A stretch of 47,039 nt of DNA. It comes from Acidimicrobiaceae bacterium (lineage in GTDB: Bacteria > Actinomycetota > Acidimicrobiia > Acidimicrobiales > RAAP-2). The notes below the pieces were generated by a model. It saw only the letters and a program-made list of their open reading frames with translations, had not been told where the DNA came from and did not search any database. How positions within the stretch are numbered: the stretch's first letter is position 1; every line of letters begins with the position of its first letter. The position numbers were made by a program, and so were the translations under genes. Positions 4,919 to 41,571 of the stretch are shown one piece after another. The stretch is taken from NCBI GenBank assembly GCA_003133405.1, contig PKXH01000041.1, positions 1 through 47,039 on the forward strand, written 5' to 3'.

Positions 4919-6319
4919 TTACTCAACTGCCACTGACGGCACGGCTCGATGCCAGTCCGTGATGTGTTGGTAGGCGTCGCCAAAGGCGAGGACGCGCGCC
5001 TCGTCCCAGGGTCCTGCCGACACCTGCATCCCGACCGGCAACCCGGCGTCGGTGAAGCCAATGGGAACCGACATGGTCGGGAACCCGAGACCATTCCAAA
5101 CGGCGGTGAACACCGGCAGCGTCAGTGCAGTGGTGAAATCGAGCCCCGCCACCGGCGGCGCACCCGCTCCGGCGGTCAGTCCCACGATCACGTCCACGGA
5201 TTGCAACAGATCCAGCACCTCTCGACGGCCAGCACGACGGACCCGCTGGGACTGCACGTAGTCGACGGCCGAGTAGAACGCCCCCGTCGTGACCATCGCG
5301 CGGGTATAGACCCCGTAGTCCGCCCATCGACGTTGCAGGTTGGCCTGGTGGTAGGTGAACGCCTCGGCAAACGTCGTGATGATGGTGGCCTCGTTGACCG
5401 GATCCCACAGGCTCATCGAAACCTCGACGACCTCGGCGCCGGCCTTGGCGAGCGTGTCGATTGCTGCCTCGAGACAAGCGGCGGCACTCGGATCCACCAG
5501 GGGGGCCCGGGAATGGTGGTCCCGCTCGACGCCGATTCGCAAGCCCTTCACCGAGCCAGTGAGGGCCTTGGTGTAGTCCGGCACCACGACGTCGGCCGAG
5601 CAGTCATCGGAAGGGTCGAAGCCCGCCATCGCGTTAAGCATCAAGGCGCAATCGCGTGCCGTGCGGGCGATCGGACCGACGTGGTCGAGCGTGGAGGCGA
5701 GCGGGACGCAACCCGACTTCGGCACTCTTCCCCACGTCGGCTTCAGGCCGGTGACACCACACAGTGCTGAAGGCATCCGGATGCTGCCCCCCGTGTCGGT
5801 CCCGACGCCGCCAAAAAAGATCCCGGCGGCGACGCCGTTCGCCGTGCCCGAACTCGACCCGCCGGCCCACGCCGTGGTCAGCCAGGGATTGCGCGGCACC
5901 GGAAAGGGTTGGGTCGGATCGGGTAGTCCAATGGCGAACTCCATGGTCGACGTCTTGCCGGTCAACACAGCTCCAGCGTGGCGCAGCCGAGCCACCACCG
6001 TGGCGTCACCGCGCTGACCCCATGCAGGATCCAAAACGAGGCTCTGGGCAGTGGTCGGACAGTCGGCCGTGGAGAGGATGTCCTTCACGGCGAGCGGGAT
6101 GCCCTGCAGCGGACCGCGATCTTTCCCCAGTCGAAAGTCCTCATCGGCTTGGGCAGCCGCCGCCAGGGCCGACTCGTCGCAACGAAACAAATAGGTGCCT
6201 AACTGCGCGTCGAGCCGGTCCGCTCGGGCGAACGTCTCCTCGGTCAACTCGACACTCGATAGTTGGTGGGCCCGAAGAGCGGCCCCCGCCTCCGCGATGG
6301 TGAGGGGGTAGTCGCTCAC
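4919..6319 (-). CDS. Amidase signature (AS) family hydrolase, AtzE/GatA-like
   Basis: A 466-residue amidase with a complete Ser-cisSer-Lys triad: Lys79 in AVKDI, cis-Ser155 in GGSSSGTANG and the nucleophile Ser179 in GTDTGGSIRMPSALCG. The 24-residue spacing of the two serines is typical of the family. It would hydrolyse a carboxamide or carbamoyl bond in the cytoplasm. The GTG start overlaps the stop of the small gene upstream in the sequence GTGA, which indicates translational coupling. AtzE-type amidases need the small DUF4089 partner AtzG, so the arrangement suggests an AtzEG-like complex rather than a GatCAB subunit; no GatB is present. The substrate is unknown. Confidence 0.9.
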   Translation of the reverse strand: MSDYPLTIAEAGAALRAHQLSSVELTEETFARADRLDAQLGTYLFRCDESALAAAAQADEDFRLGKDRGPLQGIPLAVKDILSTADCPTTAQSLVLDPAWGQRGDATVVARLRHAGAVLTGKTSTMEFAIGLPDPTQPFPVPRNPWLTTAWAGGSSSGTANGVAAGIFFGGVGTDTGGSIRMPSALCGVTGLKPTWGRVPKSGCVPLASTLDHVGPIARTARDCALMLNAMAGFDPSDDCSADVVVPDYTKALTGSVKGLRIGVERDHHSRAPLVDPSAAACLEAAIDTLAKAGAEVVEVSMSLWDPVNEATIITTFAEAFTYHQANLQRRWADYGVYTRAMVTTGAFYSAVDYVQSQRVRRAGRREVLDLLQSVDVIVGLTAGAGAPPVAGLDFTTALTLPVFTAVWNGLGFPTMSVPIGFTDAGLPVGMQVSAGPWDEARVLAFGDAYQHITDWHRAVPSVAVE

Positions 6320-34482: not shown

Positions 34483-35031
34483 GTGGAAGGCTCTACCAAG
34501 GTGAACGATCTTGAGGGATGGCTGACCGAGAGTTACCCCCAGTCTGTGCGCACGGCGTACCTGATTCTCGGCAATCGCCTCGACGCCGAAGACGCGGTGC
34601 AAGAGGCCTTCCTTCGCGCATGGAAGTTCCGAGACTCCCTGTCCCAAGGATCGAGCTTCAAGCCGTGGCTGTACCGGGTCGTGGTAAATACCTGCAACTC
34701 CAAACTTCGCCAGGAGATCCCCCATCGGGACCTACGAAGCAGCGACGACGATCTCGCCGAAGTTTCACTCCGTGACGACGTGCCAACTCGGATCGCTCTG
34801 TCGAATGACGTACGTAGCGCTCTAAAGGACCTGCCGGTGAATCTACGCGTGGTCGTCGTCCTTCGTTACTACGCCGATCTCAGCGAGCGAGAGATCGCCA
34901 TCGCCATTGGCCGCAAGCAAGGAACGGTGAAGTCTCGCCTGCACGAAGCCCGGCGACGACTGGCCCTGCATCCGGCCCTGCAGTCCGAGCCGTCACAACG
35001 TTCCACATCTACCGAGGAGGTAACCGGGTGA
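34483..35031 (+). CDS. ECF-type RNA polymerase sigma factor
   Basis: A 182-residue sigma-70 family factor with region 2 (AYLILGNRLDAEDAVQEAFLRAW) and region 4 (LKDLPVNLRVVVVLRYYADLSEREIA, followed by KQGTVKSRLHEARRRL), and no regions 1 or 3, as in ECF (SigE/SigM-like) factors. The GTG at 34483 has GAGGAAC upstream; a second GTG at 34501 is also possible. Its stop overlaps the start of the DUF4349 gene (GTGA), so the two form an operon in which the membrane protein may control the sigma factor. Confidence 0.92.
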   Translation: MEGSTKVNDLEGWLTESYPQSVRTAYLILGNRLDAEDAVQEAFLRAWKFRDSLSQGSSFKPWLYRVVVNTCNSKLRQEIPHRDLRSSDDDLAEVSLRDDVPTRIALSNDVRSALKDLPVNLRVVVVLRYYADLSEREIAIAIGRKQGTVKSRLHEARRRLALHPALQSEPSQRSTSTEEVTG

Positions 35032-36137
35032 GCATGATCGACGAAGGAGCACTGAGTGACACGCTCAACGAGGTCGCCAATTCATTCGAGATTTCAAAGG
35101 ATGCAACCAACCGCATCCTGAGCGAGGCCCGGACCGGCGCACCCCCATCACAGCGGTTCCACGTGCCGGATTTTCTCCACCAACCGGGCCGCGGTCGGAC
35201 GTTCTTGATAGCAGCCGTCTTGGTCTTGGTCGTAGGGGGAATCACGCTGCCCCTCTTTCGCGGCGAGGGCAACCCGCCTAAGAACGCCGCTGCCGTACGC
35301 GGTGCTTCGCCCTCCACGACCATTCCCGGTTCAGCCGCCAGACCGAATACCGGCGTTGCCGGCCAAACGACTCTGGGGGCGCCGACGCTTTCGGCGACCG
35401 CCGGCCAAGTCACGGTGACGGCGTCGGGTATCACGTCAGCGCCCACCAACCTGTCACCAAGAATTGAGTCCAACGGTTCGGTGGATCTGAAGGTGGCCCG
35501 CGGGCACATCGAACTCGCACTCTCGAAGCTGAGCTCGTTGGTGACCGGCGACGGGGGCTACGTCGACAGCACGCAAGCCAACGTGGGCTCACGGGCGCCG
35601 GGCAACTTCTCCTACGCCACCATCGTGCTGCAGGTTCCCCAGCGCACCTTCGCCACCCTGGTCGCCCAGGTCCAGCGCGTCGGTCACACCTCGTCGGTGA
35701 GCACCAGTTCGAACGACGTCACCGCTCAGTACGTCGATCTCAAGGCGCGCATCACGGCCCTCGAGGCCAGCCGCCAGCAGTACTTGTTGATCATGACCCA
35801 CGCCACGTCCATCAGCGACATCCTGGCCGTCCAGAATCAGTTGAACAACCTACAGAGCCAGATCGAGCAGCTTCAGGGTCAGTTGAACGTCCTCAACCAC
35901 GAGACCACCTACGGCTCCTTGACCGTGACGCTCACCGAGGCCGGGCATCCGTCGAACACGCCCCATCACAGATCGGGTCTCGCTAAGGCCTGGCACGACG
36001 CGGTGAGTGGCTTCGTCGCGGGCTTCGAGTGGCTGATACGCGTCTCGGGCCCGACACTCTTCGCTGTACTGATGCTCGGCGCGTTGTGGATCATCGGCCG
36101 GTTCGGTCGGCGAGCGTATCAGCGTCGACGACTGTAA
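35028..36137 (+). CDS. DUF4349 membrane protein, likely sigma-factor partner
   Basis: A 369-residue protein. A cytoplasmic N-terminal part (about 1-55) is followed by a membrane segment (about 60-80, FLIAAVLVLVVGGITL), an external Thr/Ser/Pro-rich stretch, the DUF4349 domain (about 145-305) and a second membrane segment near 345. The DUF4349 part has the typical GGYVDSTQANV, LQVPQRTFATLVAQV, DLKARITALEASRQ and a coiled coil LNNLQSQIEQLQGQLNVL. It lacks the zinc-finger HxxxCxxC anti-sigma motif. Overlap with the ECF gene suggests an anti-sigma or sensor role, which is my inference. Confidence 0.8.
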   Translation: MSMIDEGALSDTLNEVANSFEISKDATNRILSEARTGAPPSQRFHVPDFLHQPGRGRTFLIAAVLVLVVGGITLPLFRGEGNPPKNAAAVRGASPSTTIPGSAARPNTGVAGQTTLGAPTLSATAGQVTVTASGITSAPTNLSPRIESNGSVDLKVARGHIELALSKLSSLVTGDGGYVDSTQANVGSRAPGNFSYATIVLQVPQRTFATLVAQVQRVGHTSSVSTSSNDVTAQYVDLKARITALEASRQQYLLIMTHATSISDILAVQNQLNNLQSQIEQLQGQLNVLNHETTYGSLTVTLTEAGHPSNTPHHRSGLAKAWHDAVSGFVAGFEWLIRVSGPTLFAVLMLGALWIIGRFGRRAYQRRRL

Positions 36138-36143
36138 TTTGAC

Positions 36144-36161
36144 GTCGGCTCCCCGACACCA
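36144..36161. repeat. tRNA-Leu acceptor-end motif with hairpin, first copy
   Basis: GTCGG-CTCC-CCGAC is followed by ACCA, so that CCGACACCA matches the acceptor end of tRNA-Leu seen at 37899-37909. It lies six bases after the DUF4349 stop and marks the left edge of the mosaic region. Confidence 0.6.
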
Positions 36162-36302
36162 ACACAATCCCACTCATCAAAGCGTCGGTAGTTCCGCAGA
36201 CAGTTGCACGGTAGTGACCGGACGCATTGCGGGTGCTCTCATGCAGAGAGCGCACCTGACGAGTCTTGCCCGAGCGAGGATCCAGGGAAGTACCCTTCTG
36301 AC

Positions 36303-36629
36303 ATGATCGTTTGCGTGCCCGTGACCAGTGACGGACAGGTCGATCACCGTTGGGGCCGCGCGGAGTGGATCGCCGTGGCCAACATCGTCAACGGCGAGGT
36401 TGAGAGTTGGCAAGTGATTGAGGTGTCTTGGGACCGACTGCACGATGAGGGTACGTCAGCCCAACACCACGCTCGCGTGGCCCGGTTCTTGCGTCAGAAC
36501 CACGTGGAGGGTGTGGTCGCGCATCACGTCGGGGACGGAATGGTGCGGATGTTGGACACGATGAAGTTGCCATTGTTTCTGGAGGCGACTGGAGACGCCC
36601 GAACTGCCGTGCTGGTGGCGACGTCGTAG
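36303..36629 (+). CDS. NifX/NifB-type (dinitrogenase FeMo-cofactor) domain protein
   Basis: A 108-residue single-domain protein beginning MIVCVPVTSDGQVDHRWGRAEW, then QHHARVARFLRQNHVEGVVAHHVGDGMVRML in segments. This is the ribonuclease-H-like fold of the NifX/NafY/NifB C-terminal family, of which many small stand-alone members occur outside nitrogen fixers with unknown roles. The usual His/Cys ligands are partly present as several His residues. AGGGAAG lies upstream of the ATG; the frame is open further upstream without an RBS. Confidence 0.75.
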   Translation: MIVCVPVTSDGQVDHRWGRAEWIAVANIVNGEVESWQVIEVSWDRLHDEGTSAQHHARVARFLRQNHVEGVVAHHVGDGMVRMLDTMKLPLFLEATGDARTAVLVATS

Positions 36630-36850
36630 TCCGTCTCTTTGACACGAGCACCTTTCAGCCCGACAGCCTCCAGCGCAAGGTGGCACTCCAGTTGCTTTAG
36701 GTCTCTGACGCGAGCCGCACGCTGCAGGGCGACGAACCGAGAATTCCAGGCTTCATGCGTCGAGCTTCCTGACGCACCGGACGAGATCTCCTACGATCAC
36801 CCTGGACCTAGATCCAATATGAGCCAAGTCCCTTCGCGATGCACCGTTCA

Positions 36851-37699
36851 TCAGGTGATCGTGAAAGTGCCTTCGACGCTTCCGACGCTGCAGTTAACTG
36901 ATACGTGAGCCGTCCCTGCGTCAGTCGTTGAACCGATCATCCACGTCCAGGTCGCATCACCACTCGCGTTGGCCGCTGTCGCGCCAAGGCCGCTTTCGGT
37001 GCTTGCTCGGCCGCTCGGTAGCGTAACGGCAAGCGCGCAGGAATCACTTGGCTTGCTCGAATGCACAGTGAGTGATTCATGACCACCGGGAGCCACCGAA
37101 TTGATTAGTGAGGTAATTTTTACGCTACCGACATGAGATGTCGTTGTCACACCTGGTCCCACAGTTGTCGTGGTCGCTGTCGGCGGTACCGCATTGGCCT
37201 TAGGCCATGCGCCGAGAAACTGATGATACGCCGAGACCCAGTTTCTCGCAATGAGAGTCTGGACGCTACGGAGACTGACCTTGCCCGTGCACACGAGAGC
37301 GTGCAGACGGTTTTCAAGGATGTCCTTGCTATTCAAGTAGCCGTGCGGGTGATCATTCAACTCGGGCCACAAGTTGCCAATCGCGTTGCTCCCGCCAAGT
37401 TCGAGAGAGATGAGGTGGTCGATCTCGTACTGGCCGGTCGTGCGATGAGTGATGCCGTACTCCGCGTATACCTGGCTCTTCTCGGATTCGGGAACGTCGC
37501 GCACGCTGGTCGAATAACCGGACCGACAGATCGTCGCAACGTTTACATGGAACGTCACGCCAGGCGTCACACGAAGATCATTCAACGGCTCGCCGTGAAA
37601 GTAACGAAAACTTCCAACGGATGCGAACGCTGCCGAAGAGAGCGTCACGCTGATAATAATCATCATCGCGGCTGCGGCTACTCCGCTTGTGCGCTTCAT
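36851..37699 (-). CDS. Secreted HNH-type nuclease-like protein with C-terminal Ig-like domain
   Basis: A 282-residue exported protein. After a signal peptide (MKRTSGVAAAAMMIIISVTLS, cleavage near AFA-S) comes a domain with YEIDHLISLELGGSNAIGNL, the core of an HNH/His-Me finger nuclease (Asp-His pair and the later Asn), and WPELND. A Thr-rich linker (about 175-190, PPTATTTTVGPG) leads to a beta-sandwich-like domain that ends at the C-terminus. Conserved cysteines fit an extracellular fold. Possible roles are nutrient release from DNA or attack on neighbours; nuclease activity is not proven. Its upstream region is a copy of that of the next secreted gene. Confidence 0.75.
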   Translation of the reverse strand: MKRTSGVAAAAMMIIISVTLSSAAFASVGSFRYFHGEPLNDLRVTPGVTFHVNVATICRSGYSTSVRDVPESEKSQVYAEYGITHRTTGQYEIDHLISLELGGSNAIGNLWPELNDHPHGYLNSKDILENRLHALVCTGKVSLRSVQTLIARNWVSAYHQFLGAWPKANAVPPTATTTTVGPGVTTTSHVGSVKITSLINSVAPGGHESLTVHSSKPSDSCALAVTLPSGRASTESGLGATAANASGDATWTWMIGSTTDAGTAHVSVNCSVGSVEGTFTIT

Positions 37700-37727
37700 T
37701 GGAACCTTCCCGAACGATCTACATCAT

Positions 37728-37849
37728 GGCCCCTACGGTAAGAGAAGCGAAGGCTATGCGCCCATGTAATGCCCAAACCAGCACCAAATACTGACTGGTA
37801 GAAATGCCGTGAGACCAGGGCGCCTACTTCTTGCTGCTGTGAGACATTT
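37728..37849 (-). repeat. Duplicated upstream region, copy A
   Basis: This aligns with 39201-39319: shared blocks are AAGCGAAGGCTA, GCGCCCATGTAA, CCAAATACTGACTGG and TTCTTGCTGCTGTGA, with a few short gaps. It contains the leader and probably the promoter of the secreted HNH gene on the minus strand and continues directly into the tRNA-Leu 3' half. Confidence 0.75.
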
Positions 37850-37909
37850 CCAGCTTGAGGGGCTGGAGCCCTAAGGGGCGTGTGGGTTCAAGTCCCGTCT
37901 CCGACACCA
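37850..37909 (+). pseudogene. tRNA-Leu(GAG) 3' half, copy A
   Basis: The piece begins at a perfect anticodon stem CCAGC/GCTGG with loop TTGAGGG, giving anticodon GAG at 37857-37859. It continues with a class II variable arm (GCCC/GGGC) and a T-arm with loop TTCAAGT. It ends with acceptor strand CTCCGAC, discriminator A and encoded CCA. No matching 5' half (GTCGGAG, D-arm) precedes it. It is therefore a fragment of the kind left by integration at a tRNA 3' end. Confidence 0.75.
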
Positions 37910-37970
37910 ATCAGGCCTTAGTCAGATCAAGCCGCCAGTGCAAGGTTGCATTTCTGTTGCATCGGGTTCG
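37899..37970 (+). repeat. Mosaic repeat unit A
   Basis: The unit starts at the tRNA acceptor end CTCCGACACCA, then has ATCAGGCCTTAG, TCAAGCCGCCAGTGCAAGG and TTGCATTTCTGTTGC, closing with a degraded TCGGGTTC. It matches units B (39369), C (40333) and D (40389). Confidence 0.7.
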
Positions 37971-38119
37971 CGTCGAGTCTCCCGCACGAACAATTGACAA
38001 CTGAGTACTCTTTGGCGGCTTCTCGTGCGTGTGGGTCAGCACCGGGACTAGTCGCAGTTCATCTGTGCCGTGACGCGCGAAGCGCACGACCTTCTACAAA
38101 TGGGTCGTCGTTAGCTTCA

Positions 38120-39172
38120 TCAACTGTTCAGCCCGTTGTAGTAGGCGGTCATGTTCCAGGTAAATGTTCCGTTTCCATTGTTGATGGAGACTAATGTCCA
38201 ACTCGTGGCTTCCACCGGTGCGGAGTAGTAATCCGAGACGTAATCTTGTTGCCCCCAAGCGGCGACTGGCCAAGTTCCGTAAGGGGAATCTGGGTTGCTG
38301 GAGAAGGTTCCGGCTGCCATCCCTGCGACGTCACCACTCCATAGGCAGGTCTCGATGTCCTCAGGTGGTTGACCGGCCGTCACCACGTGATTACCGGTGC
38401 AGGCAGCGGGCCAACTTGCAGTAGGGCCGTAGACGTAGGGAGTCGACACTGTTTGAGCTGGTGTAAACAGGATTGTCAATCCGGCGTAGTAGGCGGTCAT
38501 GTTCCAGGTAAATGTTCCGTTTCCATTGTCGATGGAGACTATTGTCCAGCTCGTAGCAGTGGTTGGTGCTTTGTAGTAATCCGAGATGTATGAAAACTGC
38601 CCCGAAGCGGCCGTTGGCCAATAGCCCGAGGCGCTCCCGGGGCTGTTGGAGAAGGTTCCGGCTGTCATTGCAGGTATGTTGCCACTCCATAGGCAGGTCT
38701 CTACATCCTCAGGCGGTTGACCCGCCCTTTCAATGTGATTGCCGGTGCAGGTAGCGGCCCAACTTGCCGTAGGGCCGAAGGAGTAGGGCGTCGAAGTAGT
38801 TGGGACGGTCGTGGTCGTGGTCGTGGTCGGTGGTGTCTCTCCGGTCTGATTGACCTTCCAGCGATCAATCGTTGTGGTCTTGCCGTTCACGGTCAATGTG
38901 ATCGCATACGACTTCACCGTGGTCGAGGTGTTCGCCGTGAACCTGGCCGAGCGAGCGACGGTGCCGGTCTTGCACTTCACGGTCTTTGCGAATCCCGCGA
39001 TTGTCGGACTCGATGACCAGGCGCAGGTCGTGGCGTTTCTCACCGTGGCAGTGAACGTCAGCGAGCCACCCGAGGCGCTAACTGTTCTCGTCGTGGCGCC
39101 CGCCTGAGCGACAACGAGGCCACCGAGACAGAGTGCAACGCTGGCGATACTGGCGGCAATCTTGCGCTTCAT
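38120..39172 (-). CDS. Secreted protein with Ig-like domain and two tandem repeats
   Basis: A 350-residue exported protein with a signal peptide (MKRKIAASIASVALCLGGLV, cleavage after AQAGA), a beta-rich domain (about 30-110), a Thr linker (about 114-130) and two near-identical domains of 116 residues. Each repeat contains TPYxFGPTASW, GQPPED-ETCLWSG, SDYY and NGNGTFTWNMTAYY. Cysteine pairs inside the repeats suggest disulfides. I recognise no family; a surface, adhesion or binding role is only a guess. Its upstream region and start (MKR) resemble those of the secreted HNH gene. Confidence 0.72.
   Translation of the reverse strand: MKRKIAASIASVALCLGGLVVAQAGATTRTVSASGGSLTFTATVRNATTCAWSSSPTIAGFAKTVKCKTGTVARSARFTANTSTTVKSYAITLTVNGKTTTIDRWKVNQTGETPPTTTTTTTVPTTSTPYSFGPTASWAATCTGNHIERAGQPPEDVETCLWSGNIPAMTAGTFSNSPGSASGYWPTAASGQFSYISDYYKAPTTATSWTIVSIDNGNGTFTWNMTAYYAGLTILFTPAQTVSTPYVYGPTASWPAACTGNHVVTAGQPPEDIETCLWSGDVAGMAAGTFSSNPDSPYGTWPVAAWGQQDYVSDYYSAPVEATSWTLVSINNGNGTFTWNMTAYYNGLNS
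38138..38833 (-). repeat. 348-bp in-frame tandem duplication inside the secreted gene
   Basis: GTAGTAGGCGGTCATGTTCC begins at 38138 and again at 38486, a period of 348 bases or 116 codons. Long stretches are base-identical, including silent sites, so the duplication is recent or is being homogenised. Confidence 0.85.
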
Positions 39173-39200
39173 ACGCGTCTCCTAGAACTGTTCACATTAT

Positions 39201-39319
39201 GGCCAAGAAAAGCGAAGGCTAAGCGCCCATGTAACGCCCAAACCAAAACACAACCAAATACTGACTGGCAGACATAGGACGTGACCAGTACTTTTGCTTC
39301 TTGCTGCTGTGAAACGTTT
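39201..39319 (-). repeat. Duplicated upstream region, copy B
   Basis: The partner of 37728-37849, upstream of the tandem-repeat secreted gene on the minus strand. The same blocks occur in the same order and lead into the second tRNA-Leu 3' half. Confidence 0.75.
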
Positions 39320-39379
39320 CCAGTTTGAGGAACTGGTGCCCCTAGGGGCGTGTGGGCTCAAGTCCCGCCTCCGACACCG
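39320..39379 (+). pseudogene. tRNA-Leu(GAG) 3' half, copy B
   Basis: The anticodon stem CCAGT/ACTGG has loop TTGAGGA (GAG at 39327-39329). A variable arm TGCCCCTAGGGGC, a T-arm and the acceptor end CTCCGACACCG follow. Compared with copy A, T54 of the T-loop is C and the CCA has become CCG, so this copy is more decayed. The 5' half is missing here too. Confidence 0.75.
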
Positions 39380-39447
39380 ATCATGGCCGGTTTGTCTCAA
39401 GCCGCCAGTGCGAGGTTGCAGAACTGTGGCGTCGGGTCTCCGACACT
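39369..39447 (+). repeat. Mosaic repeat unit B
   Basis: CTCCGACACCG, TCAAGCCGCCAGTGCGAGGT and a closing hairpin GTCGG-GTCT-CCGAC with AC behind it. The middle part differs from unit A more than the CAAGCCGCCAGTGC core. Confidence 0.7.
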
Positions 39448-39468
39448 AGCTGTCAAATAATCGCAGTC

Positions 39469-40254
39469 CTAACGGCGTTGCAGTTTGGTGAACAGCGGTG
39501 CAACCATAATGTCGTGACCATGCGTCGGGTGCAACTGCGTAAGTGATTCGATGACGGCGCTCTTAAACTCGACCGCCTCATCGGGGTTCAATTGGTCTGT
39601 GAGCCACCGTGCCCCATGAGTCTGTGTCCACGCCCAATATTCTTCTGGTCCTCCAATCGGAATCCGGACAGGCACGGTGACCTGTTCGATTACGTCGAAG
39701 CCTACGGAATTAATGATCGCCTCATAGATTGGCTCTTCCGTCATTTCCGACGGTGTGCTCGATAAGCGAAGCGAAAAGGTCTCGAAAATCTGTCCGTAAG
39801 ACTCTTCCCACTCCGAGGCTTCGGGGTGACCTCCGGGCTTAGACCAACTCAACGTCCCACCGTCTCTTAGGATCCGGTGGATTTGAATCAGCGCGCTTCT
39901 AAAGTCGCTGAGTATGTGCAGTGTGAAACCACTGACAGCGTGATCGTGACTCGCGTCAGGAATGGTCGATTCCGTGATGTCCTGATGAAGTATCGAGAGA
40001 TTTGAAACGGCGTAGCCCCGGAGGACTTCAATCATTTGCTCCGATACATCGACAGCGGTGACGTGCCCCGGTGGACCTACCGCGGCGAGCGCTGGAAGCG
40101 TGACCGCTCCCTTTCCCGCACCGATATCGAGTACCGACGAGCCCGCGGGTAGATCGGCGAACTCGACGAGCTTTGCACCAAGAATTCGAAAGAATGGCGG
40201 TGTCTCGTCGTACTGTGCCGCAGCGCGATCGAACAGGTCGGCGTTGAAGGTCAT
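39469..40254 (-). CDS. Class I SAM-dependent methyltransferase
   Basis: A 261-residue methyltransferase. Motif I is VLDIGAGKGAVTLPAL, the acidic end of strand 2 is TAVDVSEQMIEVL, and later blocks are LHQDITESTIPDASHDH and FTLHILSDFRSALIQIHRILRDGG, typical of Methyltransf_11/UbiE-like enzymes on small molecules. It is not a copy of the methyltransferase at 20709. It sits alone between repeat units B and C, as if carried in as a one-gene module. G+C is lower than in the metabolic genes. Confidence 0.82.
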   Translation of the reverse strand: MTFNADLFDRAAAQYDETPPFFRILGAKLVEFADLPAGSSVLDIGAGKGAVTLPALAAVGPPGHVTAVDVSEQMIEVLRGYAVSNLSILHQDITESTIPDASHDHAVSGFTLHILSDFRSALIQIHRILRDGGTLSWSKPGGHPEASEWEESYGQIFETFSLRLSSTPSEMTEEPIYEAIINSVGFDVIEQVTVPVRIPIGGPEEYWAWTQTHGARWLTDQLNPDEAVEFKSAVIESLTQLHPTHGHDIMVAPLFTKLQRR

Positions 40255-40332
40255 TGCAGAAACCTAGCGGCGCGCCAGTTTTAAGGATTATTGAGAAAAT
40301 AACCGCGAAAGATTGGTATCGAATCTGTCACA

Positions 40333-40388
40333 TCGGCTCGCCGACACTCAACCGTCCCTTTGTTCAAGCCGCCAGTCGGATTGTGGGC
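40333..40388 (+). repeat. Mosaic repeat unit C
   Basis: It begins with hairpin TCGG-CTCG-CCGA followed by CACTCAA, and contains TCAAGCCGCCAGTCGG. It is shorter in the middle than units A and D and runs straight into unit D, so C and D are in tandem. Confidence 0.65.
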
Positions 40389-40474
40389 GTCGGCTCTCCG
40401 ACGTCAATCAGGCCTTGGCTAGGTCAAGCCGCCAGTGCAAGATCGCATTTCTGTTGCGTCGGGTCTCCGACACC
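40389..40474 (+). repeat. Mosaic repeat unit D with two bounding hairpins
   Basis: The left hairpin GTCGG-CTCT-CCGAC is at 40389-40402 and the right hairpin GTCGG-GTCT-CCGAC at 40458-40471, the latter followed by ACC. Between them lie TCAATCAGGCCTTGG, TCAAGCCGCCAGTGCAAG and GCATTTCTGTTGC, close to unit A. Both hairpins end in the tRNA-Leu acceptor sequence. Confidence 0.7.
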
Positions 40475-40603
40475 AACGATCTCCGAGTGCCTGAGAGTCC
40501 TTGATTTACTTCATCTCAAGTTCGGAAATTTCGCCCACGCATTTTACGGGCGCAGTGAAACAGGGGTCGCACCCGAACTCAACCGTGAGTTTGCTCTGGA
40601 TCT
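40475..40603. other. Short gap after the repeat array
   Basis: The rest of the 40255-40603 gene-free stretch. I see no gene and no further repeat copy. Confidence 0.4.
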
Positions 40604-41083
40604 TCAAAGGAGGCCGTCGATCTGTCCGATCGCACCTGTCATTCCCTCCTCCATGCCCATGCCCAGCATGGTCTCCATCTGGGCAACGTCGACGAAGTGA
40701 GTCACCACCGTCATGCGCGTCCCATGGCCCAGAACCTCAAAGAAAACGGAGCCGTCCATTGGTTCGATCCCCGGGGCAGGTTCGCCGTCATCGCCAGCGA
40801 GGCCATTGGCAAAGTTGATCCGATGCGGTCGATCGATCGCCTGAATCCGCCACCAGCCCTTCGGGGTTTCACCACCAGGTCCGGTCATGAAGTATCGAGA
40901 TTCACCCCCGACGACGAAGTCGTGGCGCGTGAACGTAGCGGGGAATGTGGGTGGGCCCCACCACCGTTCGAGCTTGCGCGGGTCCTCCCATACTTCCCAC
41001 ACTTGCTCTGGGGAAGCGTCGAACTCCGCCACGAGGGTCATCGTGAGACTCGCGACGTCCTTGTTGGTACTGATTACGGTCAT
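40604..41083 (-). CDS. SRPBCC/AHSA1 domain protein
   Basis: A 159-residue START-like protein: VAEFDASPEQVWEVWEDPRKLERWWGPPTFP is the typical N-terminal block, then GESRYFMTGPGGETPKGWW and VVTHFVDVAQMETMLGMGMEEGM at the C-terminus. The fold holds a hydrophobic ligand; actinobacterial members next to ArsR regulators are common but their job is unknown. The ATG overlaps the ArsR stop (ATGA), so both are translated together. Confidence 0.88.
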   Translation of the reverse strand: MTVISTNKDVASLTMTLVAEFDASPEQVWEVWEDPRKLERWWGPPTFPATFTRHDFVVGGESRYFMTGPGGETPKGWWRIQAIDRPHRINFANGLAGDDGEPAPGIEPMDGSVFFEVLGHGTRMTVVTHFVDVAQMETMLGMGMEEGMTGAIGQIDGLL

Positions 41084-41430
41084 GCCTTCTCTCCTTCTTG
41101 GGTTTCGAGGATCTCCTCAATTTGTTCGACCCGGTGAATCCAGAGCTGCTCGTAGCCGTCGAGGAGCGCCGAAGCTCTGCGCATCGTCGCCCCGTTGGCG
41201 TGAACGATCTGCTCACGACCGCGACGCTCTTTCGTAACGAGGGCGGCTCGTTCAAGCACCTTCACATGCTTTTGGACGGCAGCGAAGCTCATCGAATACC
41301 GACTCGCCAGAACTGATACCGAATCGCCATGCTCGACTGTCCGTCGGAAGATGTCGCGCCGAGTCGCATCCGACAGTGCCTGAAAGAGGCGATCGATCTC
41401 ACTCTGCGTCAGCTCGTTATCTACAACCAT
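41080..41430 (-). CDS. ArsR-family HTH regulator
   Basis: A 116-residue winged-helix repressor from the ATG at 41430 (MVVDNELTQSEIDRLFQALSDATRR). The recognition region is SVLASRYSMSFAAVQKHVKVLERAALV, and the wing VTKERRGREQIVHANG. There are no Cys pairs for metal sensing, as in the ArsR type paired with SRPBCC proteins. A longer frame to 41559 is an artefact of reading through a tRNA-like T-arm (it reads MAGIEPA). A 7-bp-arm palindrome overlaps the start codon, so the gene is probably autoregulated. Confidence 0.88.
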   Translation of the reverse strand: MVVDNELTQSEIDRLFQALSDATRRDIFRRTVEHGDSVSVLASRYSMSFAAVQKHVKVLERAALVTKERRGREQIVHANGATMRRASALLDGYEQLWIHRVEQIEEILETQEGEKA

Positions 41431-41439
41431 ACGGTTGTA
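41422..41439. promoter_or_regulatory. Palindrome over the ArsR start, likely operator
   Basis: TACAACC-ATAC-GGTTGTA has perfect 7-bp arms and covers the start codon of the ArsR gene. Binding here would block initiation of transcription or translation. Confidence 0.6.
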
Positions 41440-41539
41440 TGTTAGCAGAGACTCAACCCTCTGCCAGAGGAAATATGCGCTAAAGAGAGCTTTCAGTCTT
41501 GCTGACGTTTCATGACGTCCAACCGTCGTAGCAAGCCAA

Positions 41540-41556
41540 GCGGGTTCGATCCCCGC
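41540..41556 (+). other. tRNA T-arm-like sequence
   Basis: GCGGG-TTCGATC-CCCGC is a perfect T-arm with a normal TTCGA loop. The 3' flank CACTCG could be acceptor sequence, but no CCA and no convincing 5' half are visible. It is probably the remnant of another tRNA 3' end. Confidence 0.4.
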
Positions 41557-41571
41557 CACTCGTTTCGAGGT

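What the first reader, a model, noticed from the sequence alone, without database searches (positions are those of the whole stretch)
36144..40474. Array of tRNA-Leu acceptor-end copies splitting single-gene modules
CTCCGACACCA or close variants occur seven times: about 36152, 37899, 39369, 39437, 40340, 40397 and 40466. Five sit in a GTCGG-N4-CCGAC hairpin or close form. Two are the ends of tRNA-Leu(GAG) 3' halves that lack 5' halves. Each interval holds one or two unrelated genes (NifX-like plus secreted HNH protein, secreted duplicated-domain protein, methyltransferase). This looks like repeated integration at a tRNA-Leu 3' end by a site-specific recombinase that is not encoded here, or a cassette system that uses the tRNA end as recombination site.
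Basis: partly seen in the sequence, partly recalled or inferred. Interest (0 to 1): 0.72.

Follow-up and report, generated by a model that had tools for sequence, protein, structure and literature searches.

The report
Serine-recombinase gene cassettes at a tRNA
The repeated tRNA ends in this environmental actinobacterium mark the joints of a large array of small, exchangeable gene modules that most likely move by a large serine recombinase using a leucine tRNA gene as its landing site, which resembles an integron but is built from different machinery.

Summary
The 'tRNA-end copies' are cores of a ~49-bp one-sided site: 40 matches in this genome (E<=0.01), and matches in 24 of 36 other genomes of the genus but 0 of 24 genomes of other families. 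The intact tRNA-Leu(GAG) lies on another contig and reads into an array; 11 genomes show sites downstream of it.

The likely enzyme is a large serine recombinase, not a tyrosine integrase: in four relatives its gene abuts tRNA-Leu(GAG) and ends inside it, and 21 of 37 related genes in named records abut tRNA-Leu. Here only pseudogene pieces were found.

Modules recur in other species: 18 homologous pairs, no shared neighbours; 10 of 12 compared pairs are 7-17 points more similar than core genes. The window module 36703-37910 occurs in another MAG with both ends at the core and a recombinase gene as its new neighbour.

Closest known: tandem serine-recombinase islands (Dehalococcoides ssrA-GIs, SCC) and actinobacterial AICEs. 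New here: reduction to about one gene per site, and the scale. Catalysis by this enzyme and movement in trans are inferred.

The parts
35028..36137 (+). left flank: DUF4349 protein gene, ends 5 bp before the first site; taken as non-array DNA
   Evidence: Pfam PF14257 E 3.4e-47
36143..36163 (+). left boundary site of the array: core GTCGGCTCCCCGACACCAAC without a recognisable left arm
   Evidence: family D5; unclassified left arm
36204..36629 (+). module gene: NifX/NafY-like (dinitrogenase FeMo-Co cofactor domain)
   Evidence: PF02579 30.3 bits, above the cut-off of 26.3
   Evidence: model R1 E 1.3e-6; homology joint here
36703..37910 (.). complete mobile module: secreted-protein gene, leader and tRNA-Leu 3' half
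   Evidence: 85% identical (1011 of 1183) to L296 (CALGFJ010000042.1), homology starting and stopping at the core on both sides, with other neighbours there
36851..37699 (-). module gene: secreted protein with an HNH-like stretch
   Evidence: translation; no family match
37850..37909 (+). tRNA-Leu(GAG) 3' half including CCA; read as an attB half-site
   Evidence: 97% over positions 28-85 of the tRNA; in L296 the corresponding end is followed directly by a large serine recombinase gene
37923..37967 (+). type A left arm with decayed core shortly after the tRNA half (mini-cassette)
   Evidence: R1 E 2.6e-9
38120..39172 (-). module gene: secreted protein with a duplicated C-terminal domain; leader and N-terminus shared with a gene on contig C91
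   Evidence: repeats D1/D4
39320..39379 (+). second tRNA-Leu(GAG) 3' half, ending CCG instead of CCA
   Evidence: 90% over positions 28-85; sequence
39389..39450 (+). type A site
   Evidence: R1 E 1.9e-16; this site was in the model
39469..40254 (-). module gene: class I SAM-dependent methyltransferase
   Evidence: PF13649 E 1.4e-16
40300..40347 (+). weak site, core ATCGGCTCGCCGAC
   Evidence: R1 E 0.0022
40348..40408 (+). type B site, core GTCGGCTCTCCGAC at 40389
   Evidence: alignment A2
40415..40477 (+). type A site, right boundary of the array
   Evidence: R1 E 2.6e-16; this site was in the model
40472..40500 (+). right half of the last site resembles the 3' end of a type B recombinase gene (probable remnant): a type A / type B hybrid joint
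   Evidence: read by eye against the tRNA-adjacent recombinase ends; this site was not among the 208 counted
40604..41083 (-). right flank: AHSA1-domain protein, followed by an HTH regulator (41080-41559)
   Evidence: PF08327 and PF12840

Best explanation
The window holds a secondary piece of a genus-wide array of small gene modules whose joints are recombination sites of a family of large serine recombinases (LSRs). The chromosomal target (attB) is the 3' end of tRNA-Leu(GAG). Autonomous elements carry the LSR, whose last codons overlap the site, and in two relatives also a pSAM2-type RepSA replication initiator. Most modules carry no recombinase: they keep a ~31-bp left arm plus the core GTCGG-NNNN-CCGACACCA at one end and one or two cargo genes. 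The likely cycle is: an LSR made elsewhere joins a circular module, by its arm-plus-core site, to the core at the tRNA end or at another joint; the module then lies in line, ending in its own arm. Shown by sequence: the sites, their polarity, the tRNA at the head of arrays, LSR genes and remnants abutting the core, and modules shared between species with joints at the core. Inferred: that the LSR catalyses it, that modules without an LSR are moved in trans, and that circles exist.
For: Site profile of 208 anchored sites: conserved from -31 to about +17, little beyond CACCA on the right. Within a locus sites point the same way: 227 hits in the majority orientation over 37 loci, 4 against. Site hits lie downstream of tRNA-Leu(GAG) in 11 genomes (G000, G001, G013, G016, G017, G020, G022, G028, G029, G033, G035). 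The tRNA-nadK distance is 40-64 bp in five genomes but 33.7 kb in G000 and 79.7 kb in G033, both with sites in the gap. The LSR (Resolvase, Recombinase and Zn-ribbon domains) lies directly against the tRNA end in G034, G029, G024 and G020, with C-terminal parts at the tRNA in G003, G011, G017, G023 and G033; 21 of 37 related genes in named records abut tRNA-Leu. Arms next to LSR genes are inverted copies of the array arms (read). 18 homologous module pairs between genomes, 0 collinear neighbours; homology reaches to within 36 bp of the core at both ends in four pairs. Module identity exceeds core-gene identity by 7-17 points in 10 of 12 compared pairs. Window module 36703-37910 in L296 with both ends at the core and an LSR gene as right neighbour. 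111 of 151 modules are shorter than an LSR gene.
Against: No excised circle or strain pair was seen; everything is comparison of metagenome assemblies. The own genome holds only LSR pieces. Of 12 array-rich genomes (14 or more hits) only G008, G009, G028 and G034 have a full LSR; G000, G005, G022 and G033 have fragments; G013, G014 and G016 have none and G027 only a weak N-terminal hit. G024 has a full LSR but no R1 match at E<=0.01. The tRNA-nadK gap is also enlarged, without any recognised site, in G006, G025, G030 and G032 (0.75 to 21.7 kb), so other insertions use it too; in G000 and G033 sites cover only part of the gap. 64 of 208 left arms fit none of the three half-site types. In 12 of the 18 module pairs homology stops inside the module, could not be placed at the core in both members, or (two pairs) is inverted. 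Two of 12 compared pairs are no closer than core genes (76 against 76.2%, 68 against 71.7%). 12 of 36 other genus genomes have no hit.
Confidence: 0.75

Rival explanations
1. Accretion and decay: each module is the worn-down rest of a full LSR element that inserted in tandem and later lost its recombinase. The array is a scar record and nothing is moved in trans.
For: LSR C-terminal remnants abut many sites; 26 of 208 sites keep an LSR-like right arm against 7 of 5000 random places (the 26 include joints with intact LSR genes); the own genome has LSR pieces flush with the site at C84:1266; tandem islands without integration genes are also known in Dehalococcoides (PMC3146451, passages). The sites were found with a model that contains the left arm, so an excess of left over right arms is partly built in.
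Against: LSR-less modules are shared with different neighbours between species, so where whole modules match, their common ancestor already lacked the LSR. Small size is the rule: median 950 bp. Left arms of a known type at 144 of 208 sites against 26 recombinase-type right arms, with the caveat just given.
Confidence: 0.36
2. A classical integron (tyrosine integrase with folded attC sites) that has taken a tRNA as its attI.
For: Array form, polarity, about one gene per site, longest ORFs more often reading toward the conserved arm (83 of 130, binomial p 0.002).
Against: No integron integrase over the TIGR02249 cut-off in any of 41 genus genomes. The attC core motif GTTRRRY occurs in 25 of 208 sites, random windows 16.5 (sd 4.3), with no fixed position.
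Confidence: 0.03
3. A tyrosine integrase targets the tRNA and produced the tRNA 3' halves; the array is a pile of such islands.
For: G028 has a tyrosine integrase gene 19 bp from the tRNA-Leu end and a second 61-nt tRNA 3' end 9 kb on; G008 has a divergent tyrosine-recombinase-like gene downstream of tRNA-Leu. The window's tRNA halves start at position 28, a break that such integrases could leave (general knowledge).
Against: Most array joints share only the acceptor end with the tRNA, not the anticodon-to-end block. G033 and G013, with many sites, have only one or two tyrosine recombinases beyond XerC/D-like ones.
Confidence: 0.08
4. Homologous recombination between short dispersed repeats shuffles neighbouring genes, with no dedicated recombinase.
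For: Sites are numerous and similar, so some exchange is possible.
Against: Sites are short, with a mean column identity of 68% in the type A alignment, poor substrates. Joints fall at the core in the whole-module pairs.
Confidence: 0.06

Closest known systems
Dehalococcoides ssrA-specific genomic islands (DsiB recombinase, PMC3146451; passages read)
   Same: Tandem islands downstream of one small-RNA gene; joints are copies of its 3' end; CcrB-like serine recombinase next to attL with the repeat embedded in its gene; 16 islands with and 15 without the integration module, the latter thought possibly mobilised in cis.
   Different: There the target is tmRNA, the repeat is 20 bp and integration modules have six genes. 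Here modules have a median of about 1 kb, sites have a ~31-bp arm, there are 40 site matches in the genome and at least two arm types.
Serine-recombinase AICEs at tRNA-Leu in Mycobacterium (PMC3218068; passages read)
   Same: AICEs carry a replication initiator and a site-specific recombinase; one group of eight Mycobacterium serine recombinases integrates in a tRNA-Leu gene, described there as rare for serine recombinases.
   Different: Those are single elements (tandem pairs are mentioned for tyrosine types); no arrays of recombinase-less one-gene modules appear in the passages I read.
SCCmec / Enterococcus cassette chromosome with CcrAB (PMC6222049; passages read)
   Same: Large serine recombinases integrating at the 3' end of a conserved gene; about 50-bp repeats with inverted repeats; the best NCBIfam model for the LSR is CcrB, far below its cut-off (125 against 900 bits).
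   Different: The ECC described in detail is 32 kb; tandem ECCs with several ccrAB were not observed directly; other target gene (rlmH).
Chromosomal integrons
   Same: Long polar array of mostly single-gene modules, each ending in its own recombination site, with one chromosomal entry point (integron features from general knowledge).
   Different: Different recombinase superfamily, palindromic core instead of a folded attC, tRNA end instead of attI, no integrase gene found beside the tRNA in the own genome.

Membership tests
Integron | IntI tyrosine integrase | tested here: not met
   TIGR02249: 0 of 41 genus genomes over the cut-off
Integron | attC core RYYYAAC ... GTTRRRY | tested here: not met
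   GTTRRRY in 25 of 208 sites against 16.5 (sd 4.3) in random windows, no fixed position; both motifs in 3 of 208; motifs recalled
Integron | polar array of small modules each with a site | tested here: met
   227 majority-orientation hits against 4; median module 950 bp
Tandem large-serine-recombinase islands (SCC, ssrA-GI type) | large serine recombinase next to the att site | tested here: met
   Domains; position. Met in relatives; the own genome has only fragments
Tandem large-serine-recombinase islands (SCC, ssrA-GI type) | insertion at the 3' end of one conserved gene, with an empty site in relatives | tested here: met
   tRNA-Leu to nadK 40-64 bp in five genomes, 33.7 kb with sites in own; four other enlarged gaps have no recognised site
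Tandem large-serine-recombinase islands (SCC, ssrA-GI type) | excision and integration by the recombinase | not testable with these tools
   needs an assay or reads
AICE (actinobacterial integrative conjugative element) | Rep protein together with a site-specific recombinase | tested here: met
   RepSA PF20199 385.8 bits beside the LSR in G034; a similar ORF, by eye, beside the LSR in G029
AICE (actinobacterial integrative conjugative element) | FtsK-like Tra protein | not tested
   not searched for
Large serine integrase family | sequence relation to solved members | tested here: met
   TP901-1 integrase 1e-29, A118 integrase 7.7e-12

The most novel reading that the evidence does not exclude
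A serine-recombinase counterpart of the integron: a chromosomal platform (tRNA-Leu end plus LSR) that captures, stores and exchanges one-gene cassettes defined by an asymmetric arm-plus-core site, shared as a common gene pool by the species of one acidimicrobial genus.
Probability: 0.37. Interest if true: 0.85.

Novelty: new variant of a known kind. Interest (0 to 1): 0.68.

Why it matters
Gene-cassette arrays are known from integrons, where a tyrosine integrase handles folded single-stranded sites. If a serine recombinase maintains comparable arrays, cassette capture has evolved at least twice with unrelated chemistry. It would also show where these small-genome, uncultured acidimicrobial bacteria keep part of their accessory gene pool, and give natural sets of recombinase/site pairs that use a tRNA end as attB.

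Tried and rejected
Rfam on 30-47 kb of the window: no match. The divergent recombinase on C93 as the array enzyme: of 41 genomes only G008 has a close relative (40%), so rejected, although that relative lies downstream of tRNA-Leu in G008. The C43 tyrosine integrases: on a contig with four sites, but hits of like score also occur in genomes without sites, such as G019 and G030. Integron integrase and attC motif: rejected. A degenerate type A site pattern in IMG/VR: 0 matches. LSR relatives in phage and plasmid records: all below 60% identity (the plasmid list stopped at 5000 records). Five IMG/VR contigs carry closer relatives (60-74%, best 80 of 245 kept), one with a capsid gene.

Literature (10 searches): no paper describing serine-recombinase arrays of single-gene cassettes appeared in these listings. 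I read passages of PMC6222049, PMC3218068 and PMC3146451 only; the library lacks most subscription papers.

Limits of the counts. Module comparisons use parts of arrays (37 loci of 19 genomes: own plus 18 relatives), not all sites, and one search ran with stricter filters that lose weak matches. In one search, 227 hits gave 210 anchors and 208 were used; close site pairs can collapse onto one anchor, so the window site at 40457 was not counted. The 208 include the tRNA ends themselves of G001, G016, G028 and G029. The site model contains the left arm and was refined on the same loci it was counted on, which favours left arms. blastn finds only fairly similar modules, which biases upward. Of the 12 pairs, 11 are among the 18 and one (G000-G036, 68%) comes; I took one pair per pair of genomes with core genes in hand. 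Two of the 18 pairs are homologous in inverted orientation.


Full report
What is there. The two tRNA-Leu 3' halves match positions 28-85 of an intact tRNA-Leu(GAG) that lies on another contig of the same genome, G000:C23:13042-13126. Searching the genome with the repeat, and then with a sequence model built from 21 sites, gave 40 matches at E<=0.01 (49 at E<=1) on many contigs, including the window contig C61, C23, C91, C100, C84, C1 and C70. The 21 model sites match by construction. Two arm types were aligned: type A (CCAGTGCnnGGTTGCAGACCTGTTGC before the core) and type B (CCAGTCGnAGATTGTGGAC before the core).

Range. With the same model, 25 of 61 genomes have a match at E<=0.01: the own genome and 24 of 36 others of the genus, and 0 of 24 genomes of other families in the order (stricter filters). 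Several contigs have the same length as named records (for example G034:C1 and JABBNY010000015.1, both 25,198 bp; G029:C34 and DAIDJP010000034.1, both 42,825 bp). Those records carry mixed submitter labels (Acidimicrobiaceae, uncultured actinobacterium, one labelled Acidobacteria). I infer that the host belongs to Acidimicrobiales, probably Acidimicrobiaceae.

The entry point. tRNA-Leu(GAG) is intact in G000, G033, G022 and G001 with sites downstream, and site hits lie downstream of it in 11 genomes in all. In five genomes without recognised sites there the order is tRNA-Leu, nadK, recN, pyrG, xerD with 40-64 bp between tRNA and nadK (xerD only partly on the contig in G012). In others the gap measures 0.75 (G006), 7.0 (G030), 19.0 (G032), 21.7 (G025), 33.7 (G000) and 79.7 kb (G033). 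Sites are found in the gap of G000 (13.5-28.3 kb of the contig, and one at 43.0 kb) and G033 (43.7-51.6 kb), covering part of each, but none in G006, G025, G030 and G032. So the gap is a general insertion hotspot and the array is one of its occupants. Of 31 genomes with enough sequence, the first 60 bases after the tRNA fall into 26 groups, and the two shared groups are recombinase gene ends.

The recombinase. A large serine recombinase of about 480-520 residues lies directly against the tRNA end, convergent with it and ending inside it, in G034, G029, G024 and G020, with a partial copy at a contig end in G003. Profile search finds C-terminal pieces at the tRNA also in G033, G011, G023 and G017. 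It has Resolvase, Recombinase and zinc-ribbon domains and resembles TP901-1 and A118 integrases. Twelve related sequences were aligned. Four of them (LSR-A) form a well-supported clade; the other eight (LSR-B) are a looser group not shown to be one clade. The two groups match the two kinds of right arm seen beside tRNA genes (by eye). In a named collection, the best 37 of the 49 loci were scanned for tRNAs, and 21 of these 37 have tRNA-Leu at the recombinase 3' end, 20 GAG and one AAG; some of these are the same contigs as above. In G034 the next gene is a RepSA replication initiator, so the autonomous element looks like an AICE. In the own genome only two pieces remain, on contig C84 beside a site.

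The site. Over 208 anchored sites the conserved stretch runs from 31 bp left of the core to CACCA right of it and is one-sided; part of this one-sidedness may come from the model used to find the sites. Left arms were 105 type A, 29 type B, 10 tRNA-like and 64 unclassified. The 10 tRNA-like ones are four intact tRNA ends, two tRNA 3' halves and four array copies. 26 of 208 have a recombinase-type right arm, against 7 of 5000 random places, and 7 have an inverted tRNA-like right half, against 1 of 5000. A plausible reading is attP = arm-core-inverted arm, attB = tRNA T-arm-core-CCA, and array joints = hybrids. The four-base centre would hold the crossover; this is inference.

Modules move. The 151 inter-site modules studied have a median length of 950 bp; 111 are too short to hold a recombinase gene. 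Blastn found 18 homologous module pairs between genomes (68% identity or more, at least 55% of the shorter); none has a conserved neighbour. In four pairs homology reaches to within 36 bp of the core on both sides, in three of them within 16 bp; in two more only the right end is at the core; in the other twelve it stops inside the module, could not be placed at the core in both members, or is inverted. For 12 pairs with core genes in hand, module identity exceeds that of nadK/recN/pyrG/xerD by 7 to 17 points in 10 and does not in 2. Most direct for this window: module 36703-37910 recurs in L296, a named Acidimicrobiaceae MAG contig, 1011 of 1183 aligned positions identical, with joints at the core on both sides. 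Its left neighbour site there is type B-like instead of type A, and its right neighbour is a large serine recombinase gene instead of the mini-cassette. So a tRNA 3' half like the one inside the window has served as an integration site in a relative.

Cargo. Window cargo: NifX-like protein, two secreted proteins, a methyltransferase. Elsewhere in the arrays of this genome: Gmad2, fn3 and DUF4232 proteins, methyltransferases, a mycothiol maleylpyruvate isomerase-type protein, a chloramphenicol phosphotransferase-like protein, a zeta-toxin-like kinase, a sigma factor, a virginiamycin-B-lyase-like propeller, and several proteins without a Pfam match. I tested a choice of ORFs, not all. Longest ORFs read toward the conserved arm in 83 of 130 modules.

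What remains open. Whether modules without a recombinase are moved in trans (cassette model) or are remains of decayed elements (accretion model) is not settled. For trans movement: sharing of whole recombinase-less modules with different neighbours. Against: recombinase remnants at many joints, and full recombinases in only 4 of 12 array-rich genomes. The window locus itself could not be compared with an empty counterpart.

Place among known systems. Tandem islands bounded by 3'-end copies of a small-RNA gene, with a CcrB-like recombinase whose gene holds the repeat and with about half of the islands lacking it, are described for Dehalococcoides (PMC3146451, passages). Serine-recombinase AICEs in tRNA-Leu are described for Mycobacterium, where serine integration in tRNA genes is called rare (PMC3218068, passages). 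This finding is of that kind but reduced to about one gene per module and scaled to dozens of sites per genome. Ten literature searches listed no earlier description of such serine-recombinase cassette arrays.

Noticed in passing
G028:C36:126794-135987 (L238): A tyrosine integrase gene lies 19 bp from the tRNA-Leu(GAG) end, convergent with it, and a 61-nt tRNA 3'-end copy lies 9 kb on: a separate tyrosine-type element at the same tRNA, upstream of array sites.
   Followed up: partly
window 38120-39172 and G000:C91:4037-5374 (L063): Secreted proteins sharing 5' leader, signal-like N-terminus and about 120 residues but with unrelated C-terminal parts (duplicated domain versus virginiamycin-B-lyase-like propeller): mosaic cargo.
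   Followed up: partly
G000:C93:33081-34301 (L077) and G008:C81:6626-7417: A divergent tyrosine-recombinase-like protein; its only close relative among 41 genomes sits downstream of tRNA-Leu(GAG) in G008.
   Followed up: partly
G000:C43:17982-28295 (L073, L074): Two related tyrosine integrases, one beside an ORF resembling the RepSA-type initiator by eye, on a contig that also has four array sites.
   Followed up: no
G006, G025, G030, G032: tRNA-Leu to nadK gap: The gap is enlarged to 0.75-21.7 kb without any recognised array site, so other insertions use the same place.
   Followed up: partly
L347 and L348 (IMG/VR contigs): Relatives of the serine recombinase on contigs classed as viral: one beside a G2P-type Rep, one on a contig with a phage capsid gene.
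   Followed up: partly
G016:C74 (L240), first 160 bp after tRNA-Leu: The real tRNA is followed by a gene-less mini-cassette whose sequence resembles the stretch after the tRNA 3' half at window 37908, so the window copy looks like a duplicated tRNA-array junction.
   Followed up: partly
G000:C84:2552-3163 (L065): A module carries a chloramphenicol phosphotransferase-like protein (PF07931).
   Followed up: no
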